Program-made: the position numbers and the translations under genes
Shown: piece after piece, positions 510-24,912 of the stretch
Numbering within the stretch: the stretch's first letter is position 1
Layout of the letters: each line of letters opens with the position of its first letter
NCBI GenBank assembly: GCA_004114245.1
Contig: QZWS01000034.1
Coordinates: forward strand, 1-36,291
Direction of reading: 5' to 3'
DNA from: Zoopage sp. CT-All
Lineage: Eukaryota > Zoopagomycota > Zoopagomycetes > Zoopagales > Zoopagaceae
Length of the DNA stretch: 36,291 nucleotides
The notes under the pieces: model-generated
Database searches by the model: none
The model's input: the letters and a program-made list of their open reading frames with translations, nothing else
Told to the model about the DNA's origin: nothing

Positions 510-634
510 GTTGTGACTGTGCTCTTTTGAATTTCATTGCTTTGGCAACGCCGCGTCCACTGAGCTACAATGTAAAGTCCAGCTAACTGGGCAAGTTCAC
601 CCTAGTGTGCTGCTAGTTGTGACTGTGCTCTTTT
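510..634 (-). repeat. SINE-like repeat unit flanked by 19-bp direct repeats (copy 1)
   Basis: A 75-bp core at 529-603 is the reverse complement of 1238-1312 with three transitions in 75 bases. The unit 529-615 is flanked by identical 19-bp direct repeats, GTTGTGACTGTGCTCTTTT, at 510-528 and 616-634. These look like target-site duplications of a short retroposon. On the minus strand the core contains TAGCTCAGTGG, a match to the tRNA A-box consensus, but I see no clear B box. A tRNA-derived SINE fragment is the simplest reading; a MITE-like element is the alternative. Confidence 0.6.
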
Positions 635-1237
635 CTCTTTGGTGTGTTTTCCGGGACCAGGGATACATAGACTTCCATTGTATTCCTGCCCAAGTCCCTT
701 TCACATCCACAAGTATAATATGCCCCACACCTGACATAAGCCAGCACCATAATGAATAATGACACAATTCCCACCCCGCCTCCTCCTTCTCCCCCCTTGA
801 ATTCTACACTGGTCACTCCTCCTCCTTCTTCTCCAAAACTTACACCAATGTGCCCTAGGCAAGCCCGTGCAGCCAAGCAAAGCCTTTGCATGTGTCAACA
901 CATCTGTGCCGTATAGGCTGTGGAGCGGCAATTAATTTAGTAGTGACTGTTTTGTATTTACCCCGATTACACAGCGTCCCACAGTGCACCTCGGGTGCAT
1001 TGCCCACACACCACCCCCACCTCACCACATAGGCCACATGGATGGATCGGGAGGGCCACGTGGCCCTCCGCATGAAAACTAAACCTCCCCGCCCGAACAT
1101 AGAATCTAGAGAATACATCATCTTAGCCCAAGGACCCCATCCTTGCCTGCTGTTCGTCAGCATAACATCACTCCGGGACCAGGGTGGATGGACTTGGTGG
1201 GCATGGCCAGTGTAATGCCCTGGCCCGGCAGCATGCC

Positions 1238-1467: not shown

Positions 1468-2066
1468 ATGAAAACCAACGCTCTCCTTCTCTTCGCTGCC
1501 ACCATTGTCGCCGTTGCTGCAACCACGCTCACCTCTGTCTCAGCATCTGGCGTGCTTGAAGACAACTCCTGGCTTAAAACTCTGGTTGAAAAGGACGCAC
1601 AAACACTCGAAACGAAGTTTGCGCAATTAGACCCAAAAGATTTGCGCGCGCTAGCTCTTGGCAGGCTATTAAAAATGGGCCATCAAGGAACGATGACCCA
1701 GACGGTAGTGTCAGTGATGGGCAAGGTGTCGGATACAACCTTTAGTGAATTGGCAAATAAGGAAGTAGATTATAGCAGATCCAGGTATGGCCACAATACT
1801 GACTGGCTCTCCAGCAGTGATGAATGCTGGATGGCCATCGGCAACGTTATTCTAAAGAGAGGGGCACCCTCCAGCAACGCTGCTTTCAAGTATTTCAAGC
1901 GGACGACAAAGTATTTGTGCTAATTGCTGACTCCGAATTCGTGCTAAAGGATAGTGGCTACAGACATGTTGGTCATCACGATATGTATGGCGAGCAATGC
2001 AAAGATGTTGTTAACATGATTTATACTTTCATTGCTGCTGTGGCAGGTCTGTCCAAGCAACGATGA
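1468..2066 (+). CDS. Small secreted protein of unknown function, 181 aa
   Basis: Exons 1468-1910 and 1964-2066 are joined by a 53-nt intron (GTATTT...CTACAG) that reconciles two frames which otherwise look frameshifted. The start is the ATG before MKTNALLLFAATIVAV because it opens a typical signal peptide, with likely cleavage after SVSA. An ATG at 1414 is in frame but would add a polar leader. The mature protein is mostly helical by composition, ends in GLSKQR, and has two cysteines (in DECW and EQCK) that could form one disulfide. I recognise no domain. Its context, a repeat-rich edge next to housekeeping genes, resembles that of the other secreted genes in the window. The signal peptide is fairly sure; the function is unknown. 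Confidence 0.65.
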
Positions 2067-4597: not shown

Positions 4598-5665
4598 CTA
4601 GTCTACCTCCTCCATCTTGGACGCGTCCGCATCCTCGAGGTCGGGCATCTCATCGGCAGCAGCCTCGGCCTCGACGGTGTCCTCTTCCTCGTCGATGCTC
4701 AGACCGAGCCTGATCATGCGGTGGATGCGGTTGGAGAAGCCGGACGGATCCTCGAGCGAGAAGCCGGACGTGAGCAGCGCGGTCTCGTACAGCAGGTACG
4801 TTAAATCCTTGACGGTCTTGTCGTTCTTGTCAGTCTCAACGCGGGTGCGGAGCGACTTTACGATCGCGTGACGCGGGTTCAGCTCCATCGTCTTCTTGGA
4901 CATCATGTACGACGAGGTGGAGGCGTCGCGCAGCGCCTGGGCCTTCATGATGCGCTCCATGTTGGCAGACCAGCCAAACTGGCCGGTGACGAGCACGCAT
5001 GGCGAGTTGACGACACGCTGCGACACGATCACCTTCTCAACCTTGTCGCCGAGGATCTCCTTGATCTGCTTGCACAGGCTCTCGTGCGACGCCTTGAGCT
5101 GCTCAAAGGCAGCCTTCTCGTCGTCGTCGTCCTCGAGCTCGAGGCCCTCCTTGGTCACCGACACGAGCTTCTTGCCCTCAAACTCCTTGAGCTGCTGCGT
5201 GGCGTACTCGTCGATCGGATCAATCATGTAGATGACCTCAAAGTTCTTGGCCTTGAGGCGCTCGAGGAACGGAGCATTCTCGACGGCGGCCTTGGACTCG
5301 CCGGTGATGAAGTAGATGTTCTTCTGCTTCTCGGGCATGCGGGTGACGTAGTCCTTGAGCGAGGTCATCTCGTCGGCGGACTTGGTCGAGTAGAAGCGGA
5401 GGAACTCGGCGAGCTTGGGACGGTTCTGCGCGTCCTCGTGGATGCCGAGCTTGATGTTCTTGGAGAAGGCCTCGTAGAACTTGGAGAAGTTCTCCTTGTC
5501 CTCGGAAATCTCGCTAAACATCTCGATGCACTTCTTGACCAGGTTCTTGCGAATGACCTTGAGGATCTTGTTCTGCTGCAGGATCTCGCGCGAGATGTTG
5601 AGCGGCAGATCCTCCGAGTCGACGACGCCCTTGACAAAGCTGAGCCACTCGGGGATCAGGTCCTC

Positions 5666-5698
<33 letters not shown>

Positions 5699-6697
5699 CA
5701 GCTTGATGTTGTTGCGCTTCTTCTTGGTCTCGAACATGTCGAAGGGCGCGCGGCGCGGGAGGTAGAGAATCGCGCGGAACTCGAGCTGGCCCTCGACCGA
5801 GAAGTGCTTGACGGCCAGATGCTCCTCCCAGTCGTTGGTGATGGACTTGTAAAAGGCGCCGTACTCCTCGCTGGTGATGTCGTCGGGGTTGCGCGTCCAC
5901 AGCGGCTTGGTCTTGTTGAGGAGCTCCTCCTCGACCGTCTTCTCCTTGATGGTCTTCTTCTTCTTGTCCTTGGCGCCATCCTCCTCGTCCTCGACCTCCT
6001 CGATGAGCGGCTTGGCCTCGTCCTTGTCCTCGGCCTCCTCGTCGTCCGAGACCTCCTTCTCGACCTCCTTCTCGACCATGAGCTGGATGGGGTAGCCGAT
6101 GAACTCGGAGTGCTTCTTGACGACGTCCTTGATGCGCTTCTCCTCGAGGTACTCGAGCTGGTCCTCCTTGAGATGCAGACGGATGGCGGTACCGCGGCCA
6201 AGCGGCTCGCCGGTGGTGTCGAGCGCGATGGTGAAGGAGCCGCCGGCGGCCGACTCCCACACGTACTGCTCATCGTCGTTGTGCTTGGTGACGACCTCGA
6301 CGCGGTCGGCAACCAGGTACGCCGAGTAGAAGCCGACGCCAAACTGGCCAATCATGCTCACGTCGGCGCCCGACTGCAGCGCCTCCATGAAGGCCTTGGT
6401 GCCGGAGCGGGCAATGGTGCCGAGGTTGTTGACGAGGTCGGCCTTGGTCATGCCCAGGCCCGAGTCACGGATAGTCAGCACGTTGTTCTCGCGGTCGGGG
6501 ATGATGCGGATGAAGAGCTCGGGGCACGAGGCGAGCTTCTCGGGGTCGGTGAGCGCCTCGTAGCGGACCTTGTCGAGCGCGTCGGAGGCGTTGCTGACCA
6601 GCTCGCGCAAGAACACCTCCTTGTTGCTGTAGAACGTATTGACGATCAGCCCCATCAGCTGGGAGATGTCAGCAGCAAAGTTGAACTGTTCGGCCAT
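4598..6697 (-). CDS. HSP90: Cytosolic HSP90 chaperone (699 aa)
   Basis: This is the ATP-dependent cytosolic chaperone for kinases, receptors and other clients. It is a single exon of 699 aa, the normal length. The N domain starts [17 protein letters not shown] with the catalytic Glu in [15 protein letters not shown]. The ATP lid is present, including the [11 protein letters not shown] glycine segment. A charged linker rich in Glu/Lys lies around residues 215-265, then the middle domain ([17 protein letters not shown]). The protein ends in MEEVD, the TPR co-chaperone docking motif that marks the cytosolic form. The chosen ATG is that of MAEQF; the frame stays open upstream but that sequence is not conserved. 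Codon choice is strongly GC-biased, as expected for a highly expressed gene, unlike the secreted genes just upstream. Confidence 0.98.
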
Positions 6698-6854: not shown

Positions 6855-7068
6855 GAAGCGGCTGCCTGCAGACGCCGCTTCTGTTGGAATGCAGAATACA
6901 GGGCTGTTGGACAGATCATTGGAATGTAGGATGCAGGGCAGGAAGATGTACCGGATGAATGCTTTCTTTTGCAAAGCCATGTGGCGTCATACACAACATG
7001 TACTTCATATATGCCAGTATAAGCTACATCTTTAAGTACTCTACCTTTATAGCCTTGGTATAGATGCA

Positions 7069-7164
7069 TAGCACTGTAGATGGCTACAATACAAGCTTAA
7101 TACATAGAATTGTGGCTACAGAATGTAATGACTGCACAAGCACCCTACTACACAACAAGCTCTT
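7069..7164. repeat. Duplicated 3' flank, copy of 9315-9408
   Basis: Starting at TAGCACTGTAGATGGCT, about 95 bp just past the 3' end of the 7186-8718 gene match the corresponding sequence past the 9450-11009 gene. They include nearly identical stretches such as AATGACTGCACAAGCACCCT. It marks the tandem duplication that made the two paralogs and is better conserved than the coding regions. Confidence 0.75.
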
Positions 7165-7185: not shown

Positions 7186-8718
7186 CTACTTGTCAAAGTT
7201 TAAAATATCAGCTACTTCATCGTAGTAAGCCTTGATCAGATCGTTGCCATCCACAGCATTTTGAAGAATAAACAAAACGCGTTGAGTACCATCGTGTAAA
7301 CGGGTAGGAATAAGATGAAAGTTCCCGATTTCCGTCAACCTCCAATGGGCTTCGGCGTAGGCCTTTTCATTGACTAGCATCAAAATCTGTTGAGCCTGCG
7401 TGTGCCAGCCCAGTATGCCGTTTGGAACCGTCTTGACATAGTCCGATTGCGAGCAATCAGGGTAGGTATGCGACTCTGGGTCATCGTTACATATGATTCT
7501 AAATCCCTTTGTGAGAGCATCATGTCGCAATTCCCTGAGTATTGAATGACCCAACTCCCCTGTCAACCACATCATATCTTCGGCGTCCATGGCTGCGAGA
7601 TATATAAACCCAAAGATGATACTTTTGAAGATGTCAAAATTCGGGTGATTGAAATTTACGTTTGGGTTGTCAAGTAGTCCACTTAGAGCATGCAATAACT
7701 GTATGGGGCTTGGACTCGGACTCTGACGAAGGTAGGCCTTGAATCCTGCTGTGATGTCAAATGTAGTTAACCGAGCGACTGGTCCCGGCACAAGCAGAAT
7801 CAGCTCCTCGAGTGAAGGTTTGTATTTAAGCTTTGTATAAATAGCAGTCAAAACGTTGAACATGTCGACTGTAATTGCGGTGAGGTCAGCCTGAGTCAGC
7901 GAGGGCTTGGGATTCAGCACCTGTAGTTTTGGATGCAAAAAGGTTATCAAGCCTAGGAATGAAGATATATCGTCGCGTGAGAATCGAATGGCGAGATGTG
8001 GATCATTAGGCAGGTACTCTTTCACAAACCACTCCAGGATACCGCCCTTCCATAATTTGCTGGTCTCGAGGTCATTGCTCCGTGAATTGTCGATTTCGAG
8101 GTTGTCAAGCCAATGTCTGCCGACACCGAGGCCGCCTTTAAATGCTTCAACATTTTGAGCAAAGAGAGCATCGAGAATAGGATCGGGTCCGGCTGCTCTG
8201 CGCAACTGGAGGAGGGTGTACGGGTCAACGGTAACAGTTACATCAGCTATGACATTTGCACCAGTACCACCAGAGGATGGTCGCAACAAGAGGAGTGCAA
8301 TCTCTTGTGCCAGTGCGGGTTCTTTAAGCAGCTTATCGTGACCAAAGTAATTGATGATGTGCCGGAGAAACAAAGTATGCCGATTGTTTGGATGCTTCAT
8401 GTGCTTGGCAAGGAACTGAAGTATTGCAATTCTGTCATCCCCAGTCCCCAGGCGCAAGGACTTGAACATCGTCTCTCCTTTCATGATTGGCAGTTTCTTG
8501 CAGAACTCCTCCACGATCTTCTTGAAACTGCGGCTGACTAGGGCACAGCTTCCCACGTCTTTTAGTGTAGGAAGCTTGGACAGAATTTCGGGAACGAGAC
8601 CAGAGGTGAGGACATCGTTGAGGCCACCTTTGGATTTCACGATTGCACCGCCTGATGCATGGGCGCCAGGGACGAATGCCGCGAGGGCAGCAAGGGTGAG
8701 GATAGGCAGAGCTTTCAT
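7186..8718 (-). CDS. Secreted or membrane-entering F-box-like protein, paralog A (510 aa)
   Basis: This intronless gene encodes 510 aa. The first 21 residues (MKALPILTLAALAAFVPG then AHAS) are a clear signal peptide with likely cleavage after AHA. Residues ~41-71 resemble an F-box: LVPEILSKLP, then DVGSCALVSRSFKKIVEE. The rest is helix-rich, Leu-rich and without a domain I recognise. Cysteines are few, which is unusual for a mature extracellular fungal protein. Paralog B (9450-11009) aligns along the whole length, with conserved blocks such as LLQLRRAAGPDP and HPKLQVL.PKPSLTQ. F-box proteins normally act in the cytosol or nucleus as SCF ligase adaptors, so an intact signal peptide is contradictory. 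An effector that enters another cell, an ER protein, or a non-F-box fold with chance similarity are all possible. Confidence 0.7.
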   Translation of the reverse strand: MKALPILTLAALAAFVPGAHASGGAIVKSKGGLNDVLTSGLVPEILSKLPTLKDVGSCALVSRSFKKIVEEFCKKLPIMKGETMFKSLRLGTGDDRIAILQFLAKHMKHPNNRHTLFLRHIINYFGHDKLLKEPALAQEIALLLLRPSSGGTGANVIADVTVTVDPYTLLQLRRAAGPDPILDALFAQNVEAFKGGLGVGRHWLDNLEIDNSRSNDLETSKLWKGGILEWFVKEYLPNDPHLAIRFSRDDISSFLGLITFLHPKLQVLNPKPSLTQADLTAITVDMFNVLTAIYTKLKYKPSLEELILLVPGPVARLTTFDITAGFKAYLRQSPSPSPIQLLHALSGLLDNPNVNFNHPNFDIFKSIIFGFIYLAAMDAEDMMWLTGELGHSILRELRHDALTKGFRIICNDDPESHTYPDCSQSDYVKTVPNGILGWHTQAQQILMLVNEKAYAEAHWRLTEIGNFHLIPTRLHDGTQRVLFILQNAVDGNDLIKAYYDEVADILNFDK

Positions 8719-9222
8719 TCTTAAAGAGGGTTATTGAGTGCTATTGAGGTTTTGACGGGGGGTGGAGCGGTGGAACGTGGTGGATGGCGGGCAGTTGAGC
8801 AAGGATGTGTGGCGGACCGATCTTCGAAACCGTGCCGGATCCAAGGAGCCCTGCCGCCCCCATCAACATACAGGTGGCGGCCTTGGGACATTCTATCACT
8901 CTGGTGCACATATGGGTTATAGTCGGACTGCAATTTGCATGTATACTCCTTAATGTTAGGCCCACTCAGCATTGAAAATGAAAAGGATTGATGGTGCCAA
9001 TAGTGGCTTTTGTATACTCACAGTATAATTTCATGCCCAAGTTTAGAGGGATAATGGAAACCCAATTCAAACCAAATGTGTACTGCATAGCAGTTGTGCA
9101 TATCAGACTTGGTAATATTAAGCATACTAAACTGTCTTACGGAGTTAGTTGCCACTATGAGATGGCCAAGTGGCAGCAAGATATTGTTGGAAGCTGAAGC
9201 ATTGGTCTAGTCTTGAGTGCAC

Positions 9223-9257
9223 TGATCAGGGTTTTCTTTTTCATTCAACCCTGATCA
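9223..9257. repeat. Perfect 11-bp inverted repeat with 13-nt loop
   Basis: TGATCAGGGTT (9223-9233) and AACCCTGATCA (9247-9257) pair perfectly around a pyrimidine-rich loop. It lies about 200 bp past the stop of paralog B and about 500 bp upstream of paralog A. It could be an RNA hairpin in the 3' region, an operator-like dyad or a transposon scar. Confidence 0.7.
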
Positions 9258-9314
9258 CCATCCAAGCAACAGATATCACACATGTCAGATGGTGAGAGGA
9301 GGCACAGACTAGTA

Positions 9315-9408
9315 TAGCACTGTAGATGGCTGCAATGCAAGTTTAATGCATAGAACCAGCATGGGAATGGAATGACTGCACAAGCACCCTATTACACAAC
9401 AAGCTCTT
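9315..9408. repeat. Duplicated 3' flank, copy of 7069-7164
   Basis: This is the partner of 7069-7164. Both copies start TAGCACTGTAGATGGCT and end at AACAAGCTCTT, close to the stop codons of the paralogous genes. Differences are mostly transitions. Confidence 0.75.
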
Positions 9409-9449
9409 GCAACATCCATGCATTGGATCATACATCATTCTTCCCGCCT

Positions 9450-11009
9450 TCAAAGCTCAAAAAATTCGGATATTGCCTCAAAGTCAGGCTTGCTCAGATC
9501 GTTGCCGTTCACAGCGTTTTGAAGAATGCGCAAAATGCTAGCAACACCACCGTGGAAGCGGTCAGGAATAAGATTAAAGTTCTTGGCTTCCGTCAACCTC
9601 CAATAGGCAGCGGTGTAGTCCTTCACATTGATTAGCATCCAAATCTGCTGACCCTGCGTGCGCCAGCTCAGTACGCCATTTGGGGCCTTTTTGTAATAGT
9701 CCGATTCCGAGCAATTAGGGACGCCATGTGCCATTGGATCATTGCCACATATGATTTTGAATGCTCTTCTGAGAGCGTCAAATCGTGCATTCCCGAGTAT
9801 CCAACGACCCCACGTCCCTGACAGCCAGAGCATATCCTCAGCGTTCATGGCTGCAATATGTGAAAAGCTGATGATGCTCTGTCTGAAGTTGCTTAAAATC
9901 GGGTGATAGAAACCCAGTGCTTGGTCGTCAAGTAGTCCGATCAGGGCATGAAATAGTGCCATGGAACTTGGGCGCCGATGAAGGTAGGCTTTGAATCCTG
10001 CTGTGATGGCAACTAGAGCTGGAGCATTCTTGAATGGTCCTGGCTCAAGCAGGAGCAGCTCCTTGAGAGAAGGCTTGTAGTCAAATTTTCTAATAATAGC
10101 ATCCAAAACGGTGAACATGTTGGCTGAAATTGCGGTGAGGTCGTGCTGAGTCAGTGAGGGCTTGGGGGTCAGCACCTGTAGTTTCGGATGCGAAAAGGTT
10201 ATCCAGCCCAGCAATGAACATACATCGCTGTGTGAGAATCGAGTGGCGGGGTGTGGATCCTTGAGCAGGTACTCTTCCACAAACCACTTCATGAAATCTC
10301 CTTTCCACAATTTGTCGGTCTCGGGGTCGCTACTCAGTGACTTGTTGATGTCGAGATTGTCAAGCCAATGTACATCGATCTTGAGGCCGCCTTCGAACAC
10401 TTGAGCATTTTGAGTAAAGAGCTTATCGAGAACAGGATCGGGCCCAGCTGCTCTGCGCAACTGAAGAAGGCTGCGCGGATCAGCAGCAACAGCTGCGTCC
10501 GTCACAACAGTTGCTCTAGCGTCATCAGAGGATGATTGTAGCGAGAGCCTTGCAAGCTCTTTTGCCTTTTTAGGGTGTTTAAGCAGCTCATCAGGACCAA
10601 TGAGCTGGATGACGGCTCCAAGGGGGATGTTTGGCTTATCGCCCGAATGCTTAGATAGCATGCCAAAGGCCTGAAGGATTTCAAACTTCCTAGTCTTGAT
10701 GTTTATATCAAAGAGCTTGAGCATCAACGTTAACTTTTTTGCTGGCAGTCTCTTGTGGAGGTCTTCCACGAGCTCGTTGAACCAACGACTGACCAGAGCA
10801 ACATCTTTGACATCCTTGGCGCTAACTTTGGACATTATTTTGTGGTGGAGATAGGGGTTGTTGACGACAGGGCTGGGATCGAATTGCAGATCCGGGATGA
10901 AGCGAGACGTGGGGTCGTCTTTGAATTTCTCGATTGCGTTTCCTGATGCATGGGCGCCGGGGACGAATGCCGCGAGGGCAGCAAAGGGAAGGATATGCAG
11001 AGATTTCAT
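9450..11009 (-). CDS. Secreted or membrane-entering F-box-like protein, paralog B (519 aa)
   Basis: Paralog of 7186-8718, also intronless. The frame is open further upstream, but the start is placed at 11009 because MKSLHILPFAALAAFVPG matches paralog A's signal peptide almost residue for residue, again ending AHAS. An insertion of ~15 residues follows the signal peptide. The F-box-like segment is at ~54-83 (LHHKIMSKVSAKDVKDVALV, then SRWFNELVE). Conserved C-terminal blocks include AAMNAEDMLWLSG, a PNCSESDY segment and ILQNAVNGNDL. The same caveat applies: an F-box behind a signal peptide is unexpected. The mature parts have diverged far more than the signal peptides and 3' flanks, consistent with an older duplication under changing selection, or with partial gene conversion. 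Confidence 0.7.
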   Translation of the reverse strand: MKSLHILPFAALAAFVPGAHASGNAIEKFKDDPTSRFIPDLQFDPSPVVNNPYLHHKIMSKVSAKDVKDVALVSRWFNELVEDLHKRLPAKKLTLMLKLFDINIKTRKFEILQAFGMLSKHSGDKPNIPLGAVIQLIGPDELLKHPKKAKELARLSLQSSSDDARATVVTDAAVAADPRSLLQLRRAAGPDPVLDKLFTQNAQVFEGGLKIDVHWLDNLDINKSLSSDPETDKLWKGDFMKWFVEEYLLKDPHPATRFSHSDVCSLLGWITFSHPKLQVLTPKPSLTQHDLTAISANMFTVLDAIIRKFDYKPSLKELLLLEPGPFKNAPALVAITAGFKAYLHRRPSSMALFHALIGLLDDQALGFYHPILSNFRQSIISFSHIAAMNAEDMLWLSGTWGRWILGNARFDALRRAFKIICGNDPMAHGVPNCSESDYYKKAPNGVLSWRTQGQQIWMLINVKDYTAAYWRLTEAKNFNLIPDRFHGGVASILRILQNAVNGNDLSKPDFEAISEFFEL

Positions 11010-18056: not shown

Positions 18057-18485
18057 CTAGTAGAAGAGCCTTGGAGCATTCCGACAACCATTCCTGGCAG
18101 GTTGGCAATTGACAAAGCCCTTGATACACGACCTCTCTGTTACCTCATCACCCGCCCGAGCACCATCCTTCAGAACACTATACTGATGGCACCACATCAT
18201 CCCGGGGAGAGTTCCCTTGCACAAATACAGAGCATTTGGTCCAGGAAGGTTGCAAACAGTACCGCCCGCATTCATATACAACCCACCGCTGCCACTATCC
18301 ATCACAGCATAATCGATAATAATATTCCGTCCAGCTTGTAAAATGTTGGATTCTCCTGCTGCATAGACATTGGGATAAATGAGGCCTGTACGAGTGCGAA
18401 CGAAGGCAGCACTGGCAGGAGCGGCAATGGCAGCAGCAAAGCAGAGAGCAGCAGTGGCAAGAATGGTGATGGCTGTATGGTTCAT
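18057..18485 (-). CDS. Six-cysteine small secreted protein, copy 1 (142 aa)
   Basis: Intronless. The start is the ATG of MNHTAITILATAALCF, because paralog 2 begins MNHTITAVLATAALCL and both run into a signal peptide ending near ASA. The mature part carries six cysteines spaced C-x10-C-x9-C-x20-C-x6-C-x6-C, identical to copy 2, with conserved GGLYMNAGGT, LPGPNALYLCKGTLPG and WCHQYS. The protein ends in LFY. The pattern suggests a compact three-disulfide secreted fold. I do not recognise the family. An ATAAATA TATA-like box lies on the minus strand at about 18586-18593, roughly 100 bp upstream. The surrounding kilobase is duplicated with it. Confidence 0.8.
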   Translation of the reverse strand: MNHTAITILATAALCFAAAIAAPASAAFVRTRTGLIYPNVYAAGESNILQAGRNIIIDYAVMDSGSGGLYMNAGGTVCNLPGPNALYLCKGTLPGMMWCHQYSVLKDGARAGDEVTERSCIKGFVNCQPARNGCRNAPRLFY

Positions 18486-19091: not shown

Positions 19092-19541
19092 CTAGTAGAT
19101 CAGCTCTGGGGCATTTTGACAGCCATTCATGGCAAGTTGGCAATTGACAAAACCCCTAACGCACGGCCTCTTTGTCATCTCTTTATCTACCCGAGTACCA
19201 TCATCCAGAGCACTATACTGATGGCACCACATTGTCCCAGGGAGAGTTCCATCGCACACATACAGAGCATTTGGTTCAGGAAGGCTGCAGAGGGTACCGC
19301 CCGCATTCATATACAGCCCACCATTACCGATATCAATCACAGCGTGACTGAGAACAATACTATGTCTGTCCCTAAGATTGAGAGATTCTAGTGCCACATC
19401 AACAGTGGTGCGAACGTAGTGCATGTGAGTGTGAGTGCGAATAAGGGCAATACTAGCGTGAGCTGCATTGGCGGGAGCAACATTGGCAGCAACAAGGCAG
19501 AGGGCAGCAGTGGCAAGGACGGCGGTGATTGTGTGGTTCAT
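19092..19541 (-). CDS. Six-cysteine small secreted protein, copy 2 (149 aa)
   Basis: Paralog of 18057-18485, intronless, with the ATG chosen by alignment to copy 1. A signal peptide ends near NAAHA. It is followed by a seven-residue-longer variable stretch and then the same six-cysteine domain: GGLYMNAGGT, LPEPNALYVCDGTLPG, WCHQYSALDDG, and GFVNC. Cysteine spacing is exactly that of copy 1. Substitutions concentrate between the signal peptide and the first conserved block and between Cys3 and Cys4, while the Cys framework is fixed. This is what fast-evolving secreted proteins show. Function unknown; antimicrobial, adhesin or effector roles are all open. Confidence 0.8.
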   Translation of the reverse strand: MNHTITAVLATAALCLVAANVAPANAAHASIALIRTHTHMHYVRTTVDVALESLNLRDRHSIVLSHAVIDIGNGGLYMNAGGTLCSLPEPNALYVCDGTLPGTMWCHQYSALDDGTRVDKEMTKRPCVRGFVNCQLAMNGCQNAPELIY

Positions 19542-24024: not shown

Positions 24025-24912
24025 ATGCTCGCCATCATTCTTTGTCGCCTCTCCGCCGCATTCCTCTGCTTCCTCCTGTGTGTTGCAGGCACTCCTCAGC
24101 CTTCTCCTAGTGGTCGCTCTGCAGTGCGGCTGGAGAGGCGCCAACTTGTCACATCCATCGCCACAGAGTCCACAACCTCTGCCCACGGCGATGTCCCGCC
24201 CGCTACCGGATCGTTTCGAGATATGGCCCGCACGCTCTCCCTCGAGCTCGCCTCCGTCTCACTTGACGATTTTAAGCGACGGAACCAAGCAGAATCGAAG
24301 CTCAACGCCATCCTCGCCCATTATCCCTCCCCAATGCCAAAAGTGCTCAAGTTTGCCGAGGATTTGATCAACTTTGCGCTGTGGATTGCCGCCGAGGAAG
24401 ACCGCAAGTTTCGCTCAATCGTCGTCGCGCAGTGGTTTCTCGATACGTATGCGGGTGCAGCCGCATCACCGCCCACTGACGCCGAGCAGGTCACTCATAC
24501 CGACTCGTACATGACGTATCTCGGCACAGTTCCTAGCAAGGCATGGGAGCCGCGGTATATGGCACAGTCGGTGATGAGCTGGGCACTGAATGATCCCCTC
24601 CTACGAACCCTCTTTAAAAAGACTGGGTTTGTGGATACTCTCCGTGCGCGTTATCACGAGCTTGATGCTGCTGATGCCAATGTCGCTTCTGTCGTGGATA
24701 AGACTCTGGAGCAGTGGAAGGATGTGAAGAGGCGCTCTGGCTTTGAAAAGGCTGATGCACATGCAACGTACGGAGTGTCAGACTCGCTGTCACCGACAGC
24801 ATCCAATGATAGCAAGGCGCTGGTCGTCATGCCAAGAATGCCGGCATTAGAGTTGTTTGTAAATCGTCACAGTGGTGATCAATATGCCGCTAATGGCGTG
24901 GTACTTCTGTGA
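24025..24912 (+). CDS. Orphan secreted protein (295 aa)
   Basis: Single exon. ATG 24025 opens a strong signal peptide (MLAIILCRLSAAFLCFLLCV); an in-frame ATG 42 nt upstream would precede it with a polar leader. Predicted cleavage is near AGTPQ. The mature part contains no repeats and almost no cysteine. It is rich in helices: LINFALWIAAEEDRKF, then VVAQWFLDTYAG, and later MAQSVMSWALNDPLLRTLFK. I do not recognise a domain. Base composition is like that of its housekeeping neighbours, unlike the AT-rich island that follows. Confidence 0.65.
   Translation: MLAIILCRLSAAFLCFLLCVAGTPQPSPSGRSAVRLERRQLVTSIATESTTSAHGDVPPATGSFRDMARTLSLELASVSLDDFKRRNQAESKLNAILAHYPSPMPKVLKFAEDLINFALWIAAEEDRKFRSIVVAQWFLDTYAGAAASPPTDAEQVTHTDSYMTYLGTVPSKAWEPRYMAQSVMSWALNDPLLRTLFKKTGFVDTLRARYHELDAADANVASVVDKTLEQWKDVKRRSGFEKADAHATYGVSDSLSPTASNDSKALVVMPRMPALELFVNRHSGDQYAANGVVLL

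What the first reader, a model, noticed from the sequence alone, without database searches (positions are those of the whole stretch)
7186..11009. Two paralogous proteins with a signal peptide followed by an F-box-like motif
Seen: both genes open with near-identical signal peptides ending AHAS, then a segment with the F-box spacing (L..I.SK......DV...ALVSR.F..LVE), then ~420 residues of shared unrecognised sequence. Known: F-box proteins recruit substrates to SCF ubiquitin ligases inside the cell. Inference: if both parts are real, the proteins may be exported and then act inside another cell, as F-box effectors of some pathogens do, or they may work in the ER. This is the best candidate here for an undescribed system.
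Basis: partly seen in the sequence, partly recalled or inferred. Interest (0 to 1): 0.78.

Follow-up and report, generated by a model that had tools for sequence, protein, structure and literature searches.

The report
Expanded family of secreted F-box-like proteins
Two neighbouring genes, probably fungal, belong to a large family, found so far only in this genome, whose proteins start with an export signal and then carry a ubiquitin-ligase adaptor motif (F-box) that normally works inside cells, which suggests proteins sent out to reprogram protein destruction in another cell.

Summary
A (7186-8718, -, 510 aa) and B (9450-11009, -, 519 aa) are tandem paralogues, 51% identical, signal peptides identical at 18 of 22 positions. 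They belong to a family of 40 loci in the same 8.6-Mb assembly, several broken. All 26 members examined with a complete N-terminus have a signal-peptide-like start. No relative was found in three searches of a 5.8-billion-protein database. The F-box-like segment is real at family level: its profile scores 27.8 against ordinary F-boxes of the same genome (300 column shuffles: at most 12.9), and no other part of the protein does so. Four of seven PDB profile hits are F-box proteins, none significant singly; control segments match no F-box. Single members score weakly, and A and B lack the usual LP start. The genome is probably that of a fungus without a flagellum; the species is unknown. Closest analogues are Hessian-fly SSGP-71 and Ralstonia RipG/GALA effectors, but no LRR is recognisable here. 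Best reading: exported F-box mimics acting on another cell's SCF ligases. Export, uptake and Skp1 binding are inferred. Both structure models were too poor to decide (pLDDT 38.8 and 49.3).

The parts
7186..8718 (-). Protein A, 510 aa, single open frame with signal peptide, F-box-like segment and ~420-aa family region
8653..8718 (-). A: signal-peptide-like N-terminus, residues 1-22, ending AHAS
   Evidence: rule-based test and hydropathy; SignalP not available
8500..8598 (-). A: F-box-like segment, residues 41-73
   Evidence: Pfam F-box 41-73, under cut-off in the whole protein; segment alone 21.2 bits over the cut-off of 20.5
7189..8499 (-). A: family-specific C-terminal region, no known domain
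9450..11009 (-). Protein B, 519 aa, tandem paralogue of A
   Evidence: 51% identity
10944..11009 (-). B: signal-peptide-like N-terminus, residues 1-22
10752..10844 (-). B: F-box-like segment, residues 56-86 (weak singly)
   Evidence: Pfam F-box-like E 0.017; family profile
9453..10751 (-). B: family-specific C-terminal region
7068..7164 (-). A 3' flank holding two blocks (7068-7109, 7121-7164) close to blocks in the 3' flank of B
   Evidence: 90% and 95% identity
9314..9408 (-). B 3' flank, partner blocks (9314-9355, 9365-9408)

Best explanation
A and B belong to an expanded, fast-diverging family, probably fungal, of exported F-box-like proteins. A cleavable signal peptide takes each protein into the secretory pathway (supported by sequence). 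Outside the producing cell the mature protein reaches the cytosol of another cell, most likely that of a host or prey organism (inferred). There its N-terminal F-box-like helices dock on the recipient's Skp1 (inferred from the motif), and the variable C-terminal ~420 residues choose a target, so that a recipient SCF ligase ubiquitinates it, or is occupied and blocked (inferred). The family grows by duplication, recombination and loss.
For: Signal-peptide-like start in 26 of 26 members with complete N-termini, against 100 of 5200 shuffles; 9 of 10 genome hits (up to one mismatch) to a signal-peptide DNA pattern lie in family genes, and the pattern read backwards has none. F-box: profile-profile score 27.8 versus at most 12.9 in 300 column shuffles; of 21 tiled windows along the family alignment only the three that overlap the segment score; the hhalign tool on the same alignments gives P 2.1e-5 versus 0.21 for a control segment; Pfam F-box matches 9 and F-box-like 6 of 26 segments at E up to 1, best 1.3e-5, and no control segment of 26 matches either; 4 of 7 PDB profile hits are F-box proteins (FBXO4 twice, Cdc4, cyclin F; E 0.096-1.8), the control profile has no hit. 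24 of 26 have no Met between signal peptide and F-box, so a downstream start giving a cytosolic F-box form is unlikely. No KDEL-like C-terminus in 26 of 26. N-glycosylation sequons are fewer than in shuffles (40 vs 62.7, z -3.2) while the reversed motif is not (63 vs 62.8). dN/dS of the part after the F-box is 0.50-1.01 in 15 pairs. Four of 40 loci have stops inside the match, and a fifth has one in a second piece; dS differs between segments of the same pair, as in a birth-and-death family. Precedent: SSGP-71 and RipG7 effectors join an N-terminal F-box to LRRs and interact with host Skp proteins (PMC4617103, passages).
Against: A and B lack the LP start; 6 of 26 members lack any [LIVF]P there. 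Most single-member Pfam scores are weak; none of the 13 genome places over the F-box-like cut-off is a family member, and only 4 of the 17 over the F-box cut-off are; the readable part of one further member matched no Pfam family. The PDB E-values are not significant singly, and a uridylyltransferase ranks above Cdc4. dN/dS of the F-box segment (0.30-1.38 in the same 15 pairs) is not lower than that of the rest, so no stronger constraint on the F-box is visible; the 15 pairs share members and there is no housekeeping control. AlphaFold2 with two sequences gave pLDDT 38.8 (whole protein) and 49.3 (F-box region; there the segment is drawn as two helices and a short turn, not three helices). The sequon depletion weakens in 15 representatives (25 vs 39.0; reversed 32 vs 39.4), and one control motif, D-x-S/T, also departs from shuffles (110 vs 88.2, z 2.5). 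No uptake motif, host, expression or Skp1 binding is known.
Confidence: 0.5

Rival explanations
1. The proteins are secreted but stay outside cells or in the cell wall; the F-box-like helices are inherited from a cytosolic F-box ancestor, or converge on it, and no longer bind Skp1. The family is a set of helical adhesins, binders or toxin-like proteins.
For: Signal-peptide-like starts in 26 of 26; LP lost in A, B and others; no stronger constraint on the F-box segment than on the rest; no Pfam or PDB match for the rest of the protein that would place it in the cytosol.
Against: The F-box pattern is still detectable across members with 5-35% identity to A in that segment, and among 21 tiled windows only those over this segment match the F-box set. 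Few cysteines (1-7 in the mature part) and reduced N-glycosylation sites, which I take as untypical of wall or extracellular proteins (recalled).
Confidence: 0.25
2. The proteins act in the producing cell, in the ER lumen or after retro-translocation to its own cytosol, for example in quality control or self/nonself conflict between nuclei or strains, joining the fungus's own SCF through one of its two Skp1-like proteins.
For: The genome has a canonical Skp1 (161 aa) and a divergent Skp1-like gene.
Against: No ER-retrieval C-terminus in 26 of 26; neither Skp1 has an evident signal peptide (by eye); a 40-locus fast-diverging family would be unusual for housekeeping quality control (inference).
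Confidence: 0.15
3. The F-box similarity is a chance resemblance of two short helices in an unrelated helical secreted family.
For: Weak single-sequence scores, non-significant PDB E-values, low-confidence models with two rather than three clear helices.
Against: None of 300 column-shuffled profiles came near the observed score, and other regions of the same alignment do not score; none of 26 control segments matched an F-box model.
Confidence: 0.1

Closest known systems
Hessian fly SSGP-71 effector family (Mayetiola destructor)
   Same: Effector family of a eukaryote; N-terminal F-box, then a long target region; one named member lacks the F-box; interacts with host Skp proteins (PMC4617103, passages read). 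That the family is secreted and very large is recalled and from a reference title seen.
   Different: C-terminal part of SSGP-71 is LRR; here no LRR was recognised. Producer here is probably a fungus, and Skp1 binding is untested.
RipG/GALA F-box effectors of Ralstonia solanacearum
   Same: N-terminal F-box plus target domain, seven paralogues, positively selected sites mostly in the target part (PMC4617103, passages).
   Different: Bacterial type III effectors (lack of a Sec-type signal peptide is recalled); LRR C-terminus.
F-box and BTB families of Parachlamydiaceae
   Same: Large birth-and-death families of ubiquitin-related proteins, proposed effectors (PMC4209131, abstract and outline only).
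   Different: Bacterial, type III secretion.
Rhizophagus clarus effector candidate NLS_30765
   Same: Fungal effector candidate with an F-box-like domain (PMC4746824, passages).
   Different: One candidate in the passages read, no expanded family described there; relation to this family not tested.
Ordinary cytosolic F-box proteins (FBXO4, Cdc4, cyclin F)
   Same: F-box motif spacing.
   Different: No signal peptide and different C-terminal domains (recalled).

Membership tests
F-box domain (PF00646 / PF12937) | Profile match over the curated cut-off | tested here: inconclusive
   Whole A 16.7 (cut-off 20.5) and 18.7 bits (cut-off 24.3), B 15.3 (cut-off 24.3); A segment 21.2, over 20.5; in the genome scan 4 of 17 places over the F-box cut-off are family members, two of them only with their neighbours in the frame, and 0 of 13 over the F-box-like cut-off
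F-box domain (PF00646 / PF12937) | Family-level similarity to known F-boxes beyond chance | tested here: met
   Score 27.8 vs at most 12.9 in 300 shuffles; P 2.1e-5 vs 0.21 control
F-box domain (PF00646 / PF12937) | LP at the start (recalled consensus) | tested here: not met
   Not met in A and B; LP in 12 of 26, [LIVF]P in 20 of 26
F-box domain (PF00646 / PF12937) | Three-helix fold | tested here: inconclusive
   pLDDT 49.3 with two sequences; two helices and a short turn drawn in the segment
F-box domain (PF00646 / PF12937) | Skp1 binding | not testable with these tools
   No complex prediction or assay available
Secreted proteins | N-terminal cleavable signal peptide | tested here: met
   Rule-based only: 26 of 26 vs 100 of 5200 shuffles; SignalP not run
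SSGP-71-type F-box-LRR effectors | C-terminal leucine-rich repeats | tested here: not met
   No LRR family among the Pfam matches of 21 members at E up to 1; none in the PDB profile search; degenerate repeats could be missed
SSGP-71-type F-box-LRR effectors | Binding to host Skp proteins | not testable with these tools
   Host unknown

The most novel reading that the evidence does not exclude
A fungal lineage has independently built a repertoire of about 40 exported F-box substrate receptors with a new target-binding region, used to redirect the SCF ligases of another organism: a eukaryotic counterpart, without recognisable LRRs, of the Hessian-fly and Ralstonia F-box effectors.
Probability: 0.42. 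Interest if true: 0.8.

Novelty: new variant of a known kind. Interest (0 to 1): 0.62.

Why it matters
F-box mimicry is known in bacterial effectors and in one insect family. A multigene family in a probable fungus, with an unknown target region and no relatives found, would show that eukaryotic parasites or predators can also evolve such repertoires from scratch. Its variable C-terminal parts would be a ready panel for finding which proteins of the recipient are marked for destruction.

Tried and rejected
Homologues: A alone, the 21-member profile A2 and the five-member subfamily profile A7 gave nothing at E 0.001 or better. Each time only the 7,995-7,998 candidates sharing most words were scored, so distant relatives are not excluded, and the share of eukaryotic genomes in that database is unknown to me. 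Viral contigs with A and prokaryote genomes with B gave no relative; the tool adds that records near the window's own genome may be left out there. Structure: both AlphaFold2 models were too poor, so no fold search was run on them. ATP transporter PF03219: no match, but the tool says this shows nothing because no control rang. Species: Hsp90 scores higher with human HSP90-beta (up to 1086.5 bits) than with yeast HSC82 (1038.8), which names nothing; the 18S search failed. A link of the secreted ORF 24025-24912 to the family is not significant. Leucine-rich repeats and ER-retrieval signals were looked for and not found. Literature: nine searches listed no fungal multigene secreted F-box family that I could recognise. 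These were listings, several of them capped (25 of 389, 15 of 22, 10 of 75), in a library without most subscription papers. I read passages of PMC4617103, PMC4746824, PMC6892190, PMC10406608 and PMC6784888 and the abstract and outline of PMC4209131.

Rows dropped: 28 loci were read; one was dropped because it runs into a masked stretch; its readable part was scanned later and matched no Pfam family. The other 27 ORFs plus 5 make 32, of which the 26 with a complete N-terminus were used; L036, L038, L041, L042, L043 and L044 were left out for lack of a readable start. A2 holds 21 of these 26. The F-box reference set A6 holds 8 segments, out of 25 and 26 genome matches; a ninth that I extracted (L016) was left out because its flank has a stop.
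Full report
What is there. A is the ORF 7186-8718 and B the ORF 9450-11009, both on the minus strand and both single open frames. They are 51% identical over their whole length, and their first 22 residues match at 18 positions. The spacing of 2.24-2.29 kb between their matching blocks and the similar 3' flanks (90% over 42 and 95% over 44 bases) mark them as a tandem duplication.

A family, not a pair. Four of them (C91, C28, C351, C389) have stop codons inside the match, and C270 has one in a second piece; the search ignores introns, so a stop need not always mean a dead gene. A midpoint-rooted tree of 26 members shows 20 rows including A and B apart from six rows, L021, L057-L060 and the long-branched L061, whose place is unsure. 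A and B are each other's closest relatives, next to L003 and L004. 17 of the 35 loci that I entered lie within 2 kb of a contig end, against 7.8 expected. That may mean subtelomeric placement or merely assembly breaks at repeats.

Signal peptide. SignalP was not available. A simple rule of mine (no acidic residue before a 10-residue hydrophobic stretch free of charges, then a small-x-small site, a recalled pattern) is met by 26 of 26 members with complete N-termini, by 100 of 5200 whole-protein shuffles, and by 6 of 61 other ORFs of at least 100 aa in the window. A signal-peptide DNA pattern with up to one mismatch finds 10 places in the genome, 9 of them in family genes, and none when read backwards. 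From residue 31 on, 23 of 26 proteins stay below a mean hydropathy of 1.6 in every 19-residue window; L046, L049 and L051 reach 1.84-2.07.

F-box. Whole A matches Pfam F-box-like (E 0.0015) and F-box (E 0.007) within residues 41-73, and B matches F-box-like (E 0.017), all under Pfam's cut-offs. Of 21 whole members only 4 match F-box and 3 F-box-like at E up to 1. Taken as a family the signal is clear. Of 26 segments, 9 match F-box and 6 F-box-like at E up to 1 (best 1.3e-5), and A's own segment passes the F-box cut-off; 26 control segments from further downstream match neither, though six other families match one control segment each. The family profile aligned to eight F-boxes of other proteins of the same genome scores 27.8, while 300 column shuffles reach at most 12.9 and the reversed profile 6.1; of 21 windows along the family alignment, only the three overlapping this segment score (the same comparison with the other tool). 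Against the PDB, four of seven listed sequences are F-box proteins (FBXO4 twice, Cdc4, cyclin F), with E between 0.096 and 1.8; a uridylyltransferase ranks above Cdc4, so this is suggestive only. The control profile finds none. LP is present in 12 of 26 and [LIVF]P in 20 of 26, but in neither A nor B. So A and B are among the more degenerate members. In the genome scan 4 of 17 places over the F-box cut-off are family members, two of them only with their neighbours in the frame, and none of 13 over the F-box-like cut-off.

The rest of the protein. The remaining ~420 residues have a conserved core (GLGID..W around A residues 196-203, WF at 230-231, and a later VL.W.TQ motif) and no recognisable domain in Pfam or the PDB. 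They draw helices only; in the second the F-box segment is two helices and a short turn. They prove no fold either way.

Evolution. In 15 pairs of closer paralogues the part after the F-box has dN/dS 0.50-1.01 by Nei-Gojobori counts. That is high by recalled standards, but there is no housekeeping control and the pairs share members. The F-box segment has 0.30-1.38 in the same pairs, so it is not visibly more constrained, which counts against a strict binding role. Synonymous distance varies between segments of the same pair: in L039, L045 and L047 the F-box segment has dS 0.03-0.10 while the rest has 0.34-0.38, and in A and B the F-box has 1.21, the rest 0.40 and the signal peptide 0.12. This points to recombination or gene conversion. 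N-glycosylation sequons are fewer than in shuffles (40 vs 62.7 in 26 members) while the reversed motif is at expectation (63 vs 62.8); of four other control motifs three are at expectation and one, D-x-S/T, is in excess (110 vs 88.2). In 15 representatives the contrast is weaker (25 vs 39.0; reversed 32 vs 39.4), and five cytosolic-type window proteins show no depletion (10 vs 8.2). I read this as a hint that the proteins pass through the ER but need bare surfaces, no more.

Organism and machinery. Two matches to Chitin_synth_1 (PF01644) and only one confident dynein heavy chain plus one match under the cut-off suggest a fungus without a flagellum; that these markers mean so is recalled, and it holds only if the assembly is reasonably complete. 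The genome has a canonical Skp1 and a second, divergent Skp1-like gene, neither with an evident signal peptide by eye, and a dozen or more other F-box genes.

Mechanism. Shown by sequence: a signal-peptide-like start, an F-box-like segment at family level, family expansion, fast divergence, no relatives found. Inferred: secretion, entry into another cell, Skp1 docking, target choice by the C-terminal part. I give this reading 0.5. The arrangement of F-box plus target region in an effector family is that of SSGP-71 of the Hessian fly and of the type III effectors RipG/GALA of Ralstonia (PMC4617103, passages); Parachlamydiaceae show similar birth-and-death expansion (PMC4209131, abstract). Unlike SSGP-71 and RipG, no LRR is recognisable here, so I do not file it in those families; it may work like them.

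Novelty. No fungal multigene secreted F-box family that I could recognise appeared in the listings of nine literature searches, several of them capped. Rhizophagus clarus has one effector candidate with an F-box-like domain (PMC4746824, passages). I therefore rate it a new variant of a known kind.

Noticed in passing
window 18057-18485 (-) and 19092-19541 (-): A second neighbouring pair of small secreted-looking proteins (142 and 149 aa), alike by eye, with no Pfam match.
   Followed up: no
window 1468-1923 (+): Another orphan of 151 aa with a signal-peptide-like start and no Pfam match.
   Followed up: partly
window 24025-24912 (+): Secreted-looking 295-aa orphan with a faint, non-significant resemblance to the VL.W motif of the family's C-terminus (probability 1.85%).
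   Followed up: partly
L056 (G000 C254), 540-1130 (-): A divergent second Skp1-like gene, good match in the Skp1 dimerisation domain and weaker in the POZ part.
   Followed up: partly
family loci across G000: 17 of 35 family loci entered lie within 2 kb of a contig end, 7.8 expected: subtelomeric placement or assembly breaks.
   Followed up: partly
window CDSs 7186-8718 and 9450-11009 versus 4598-6697: The 13 family genes measured have GC3 of 0.44-0.55, far below Hsp90 (0.92) and below four other housekeeping-type genes of the window (0.58-0.72).
   Followed up: no
window 7068-7164 and 9314-9408: 3' flanks of A and B hold blocks 90-95% identical, more alike than the coding blocks listed (76-85%); recent conversion or a shared mRNA element.
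   Followed up: no
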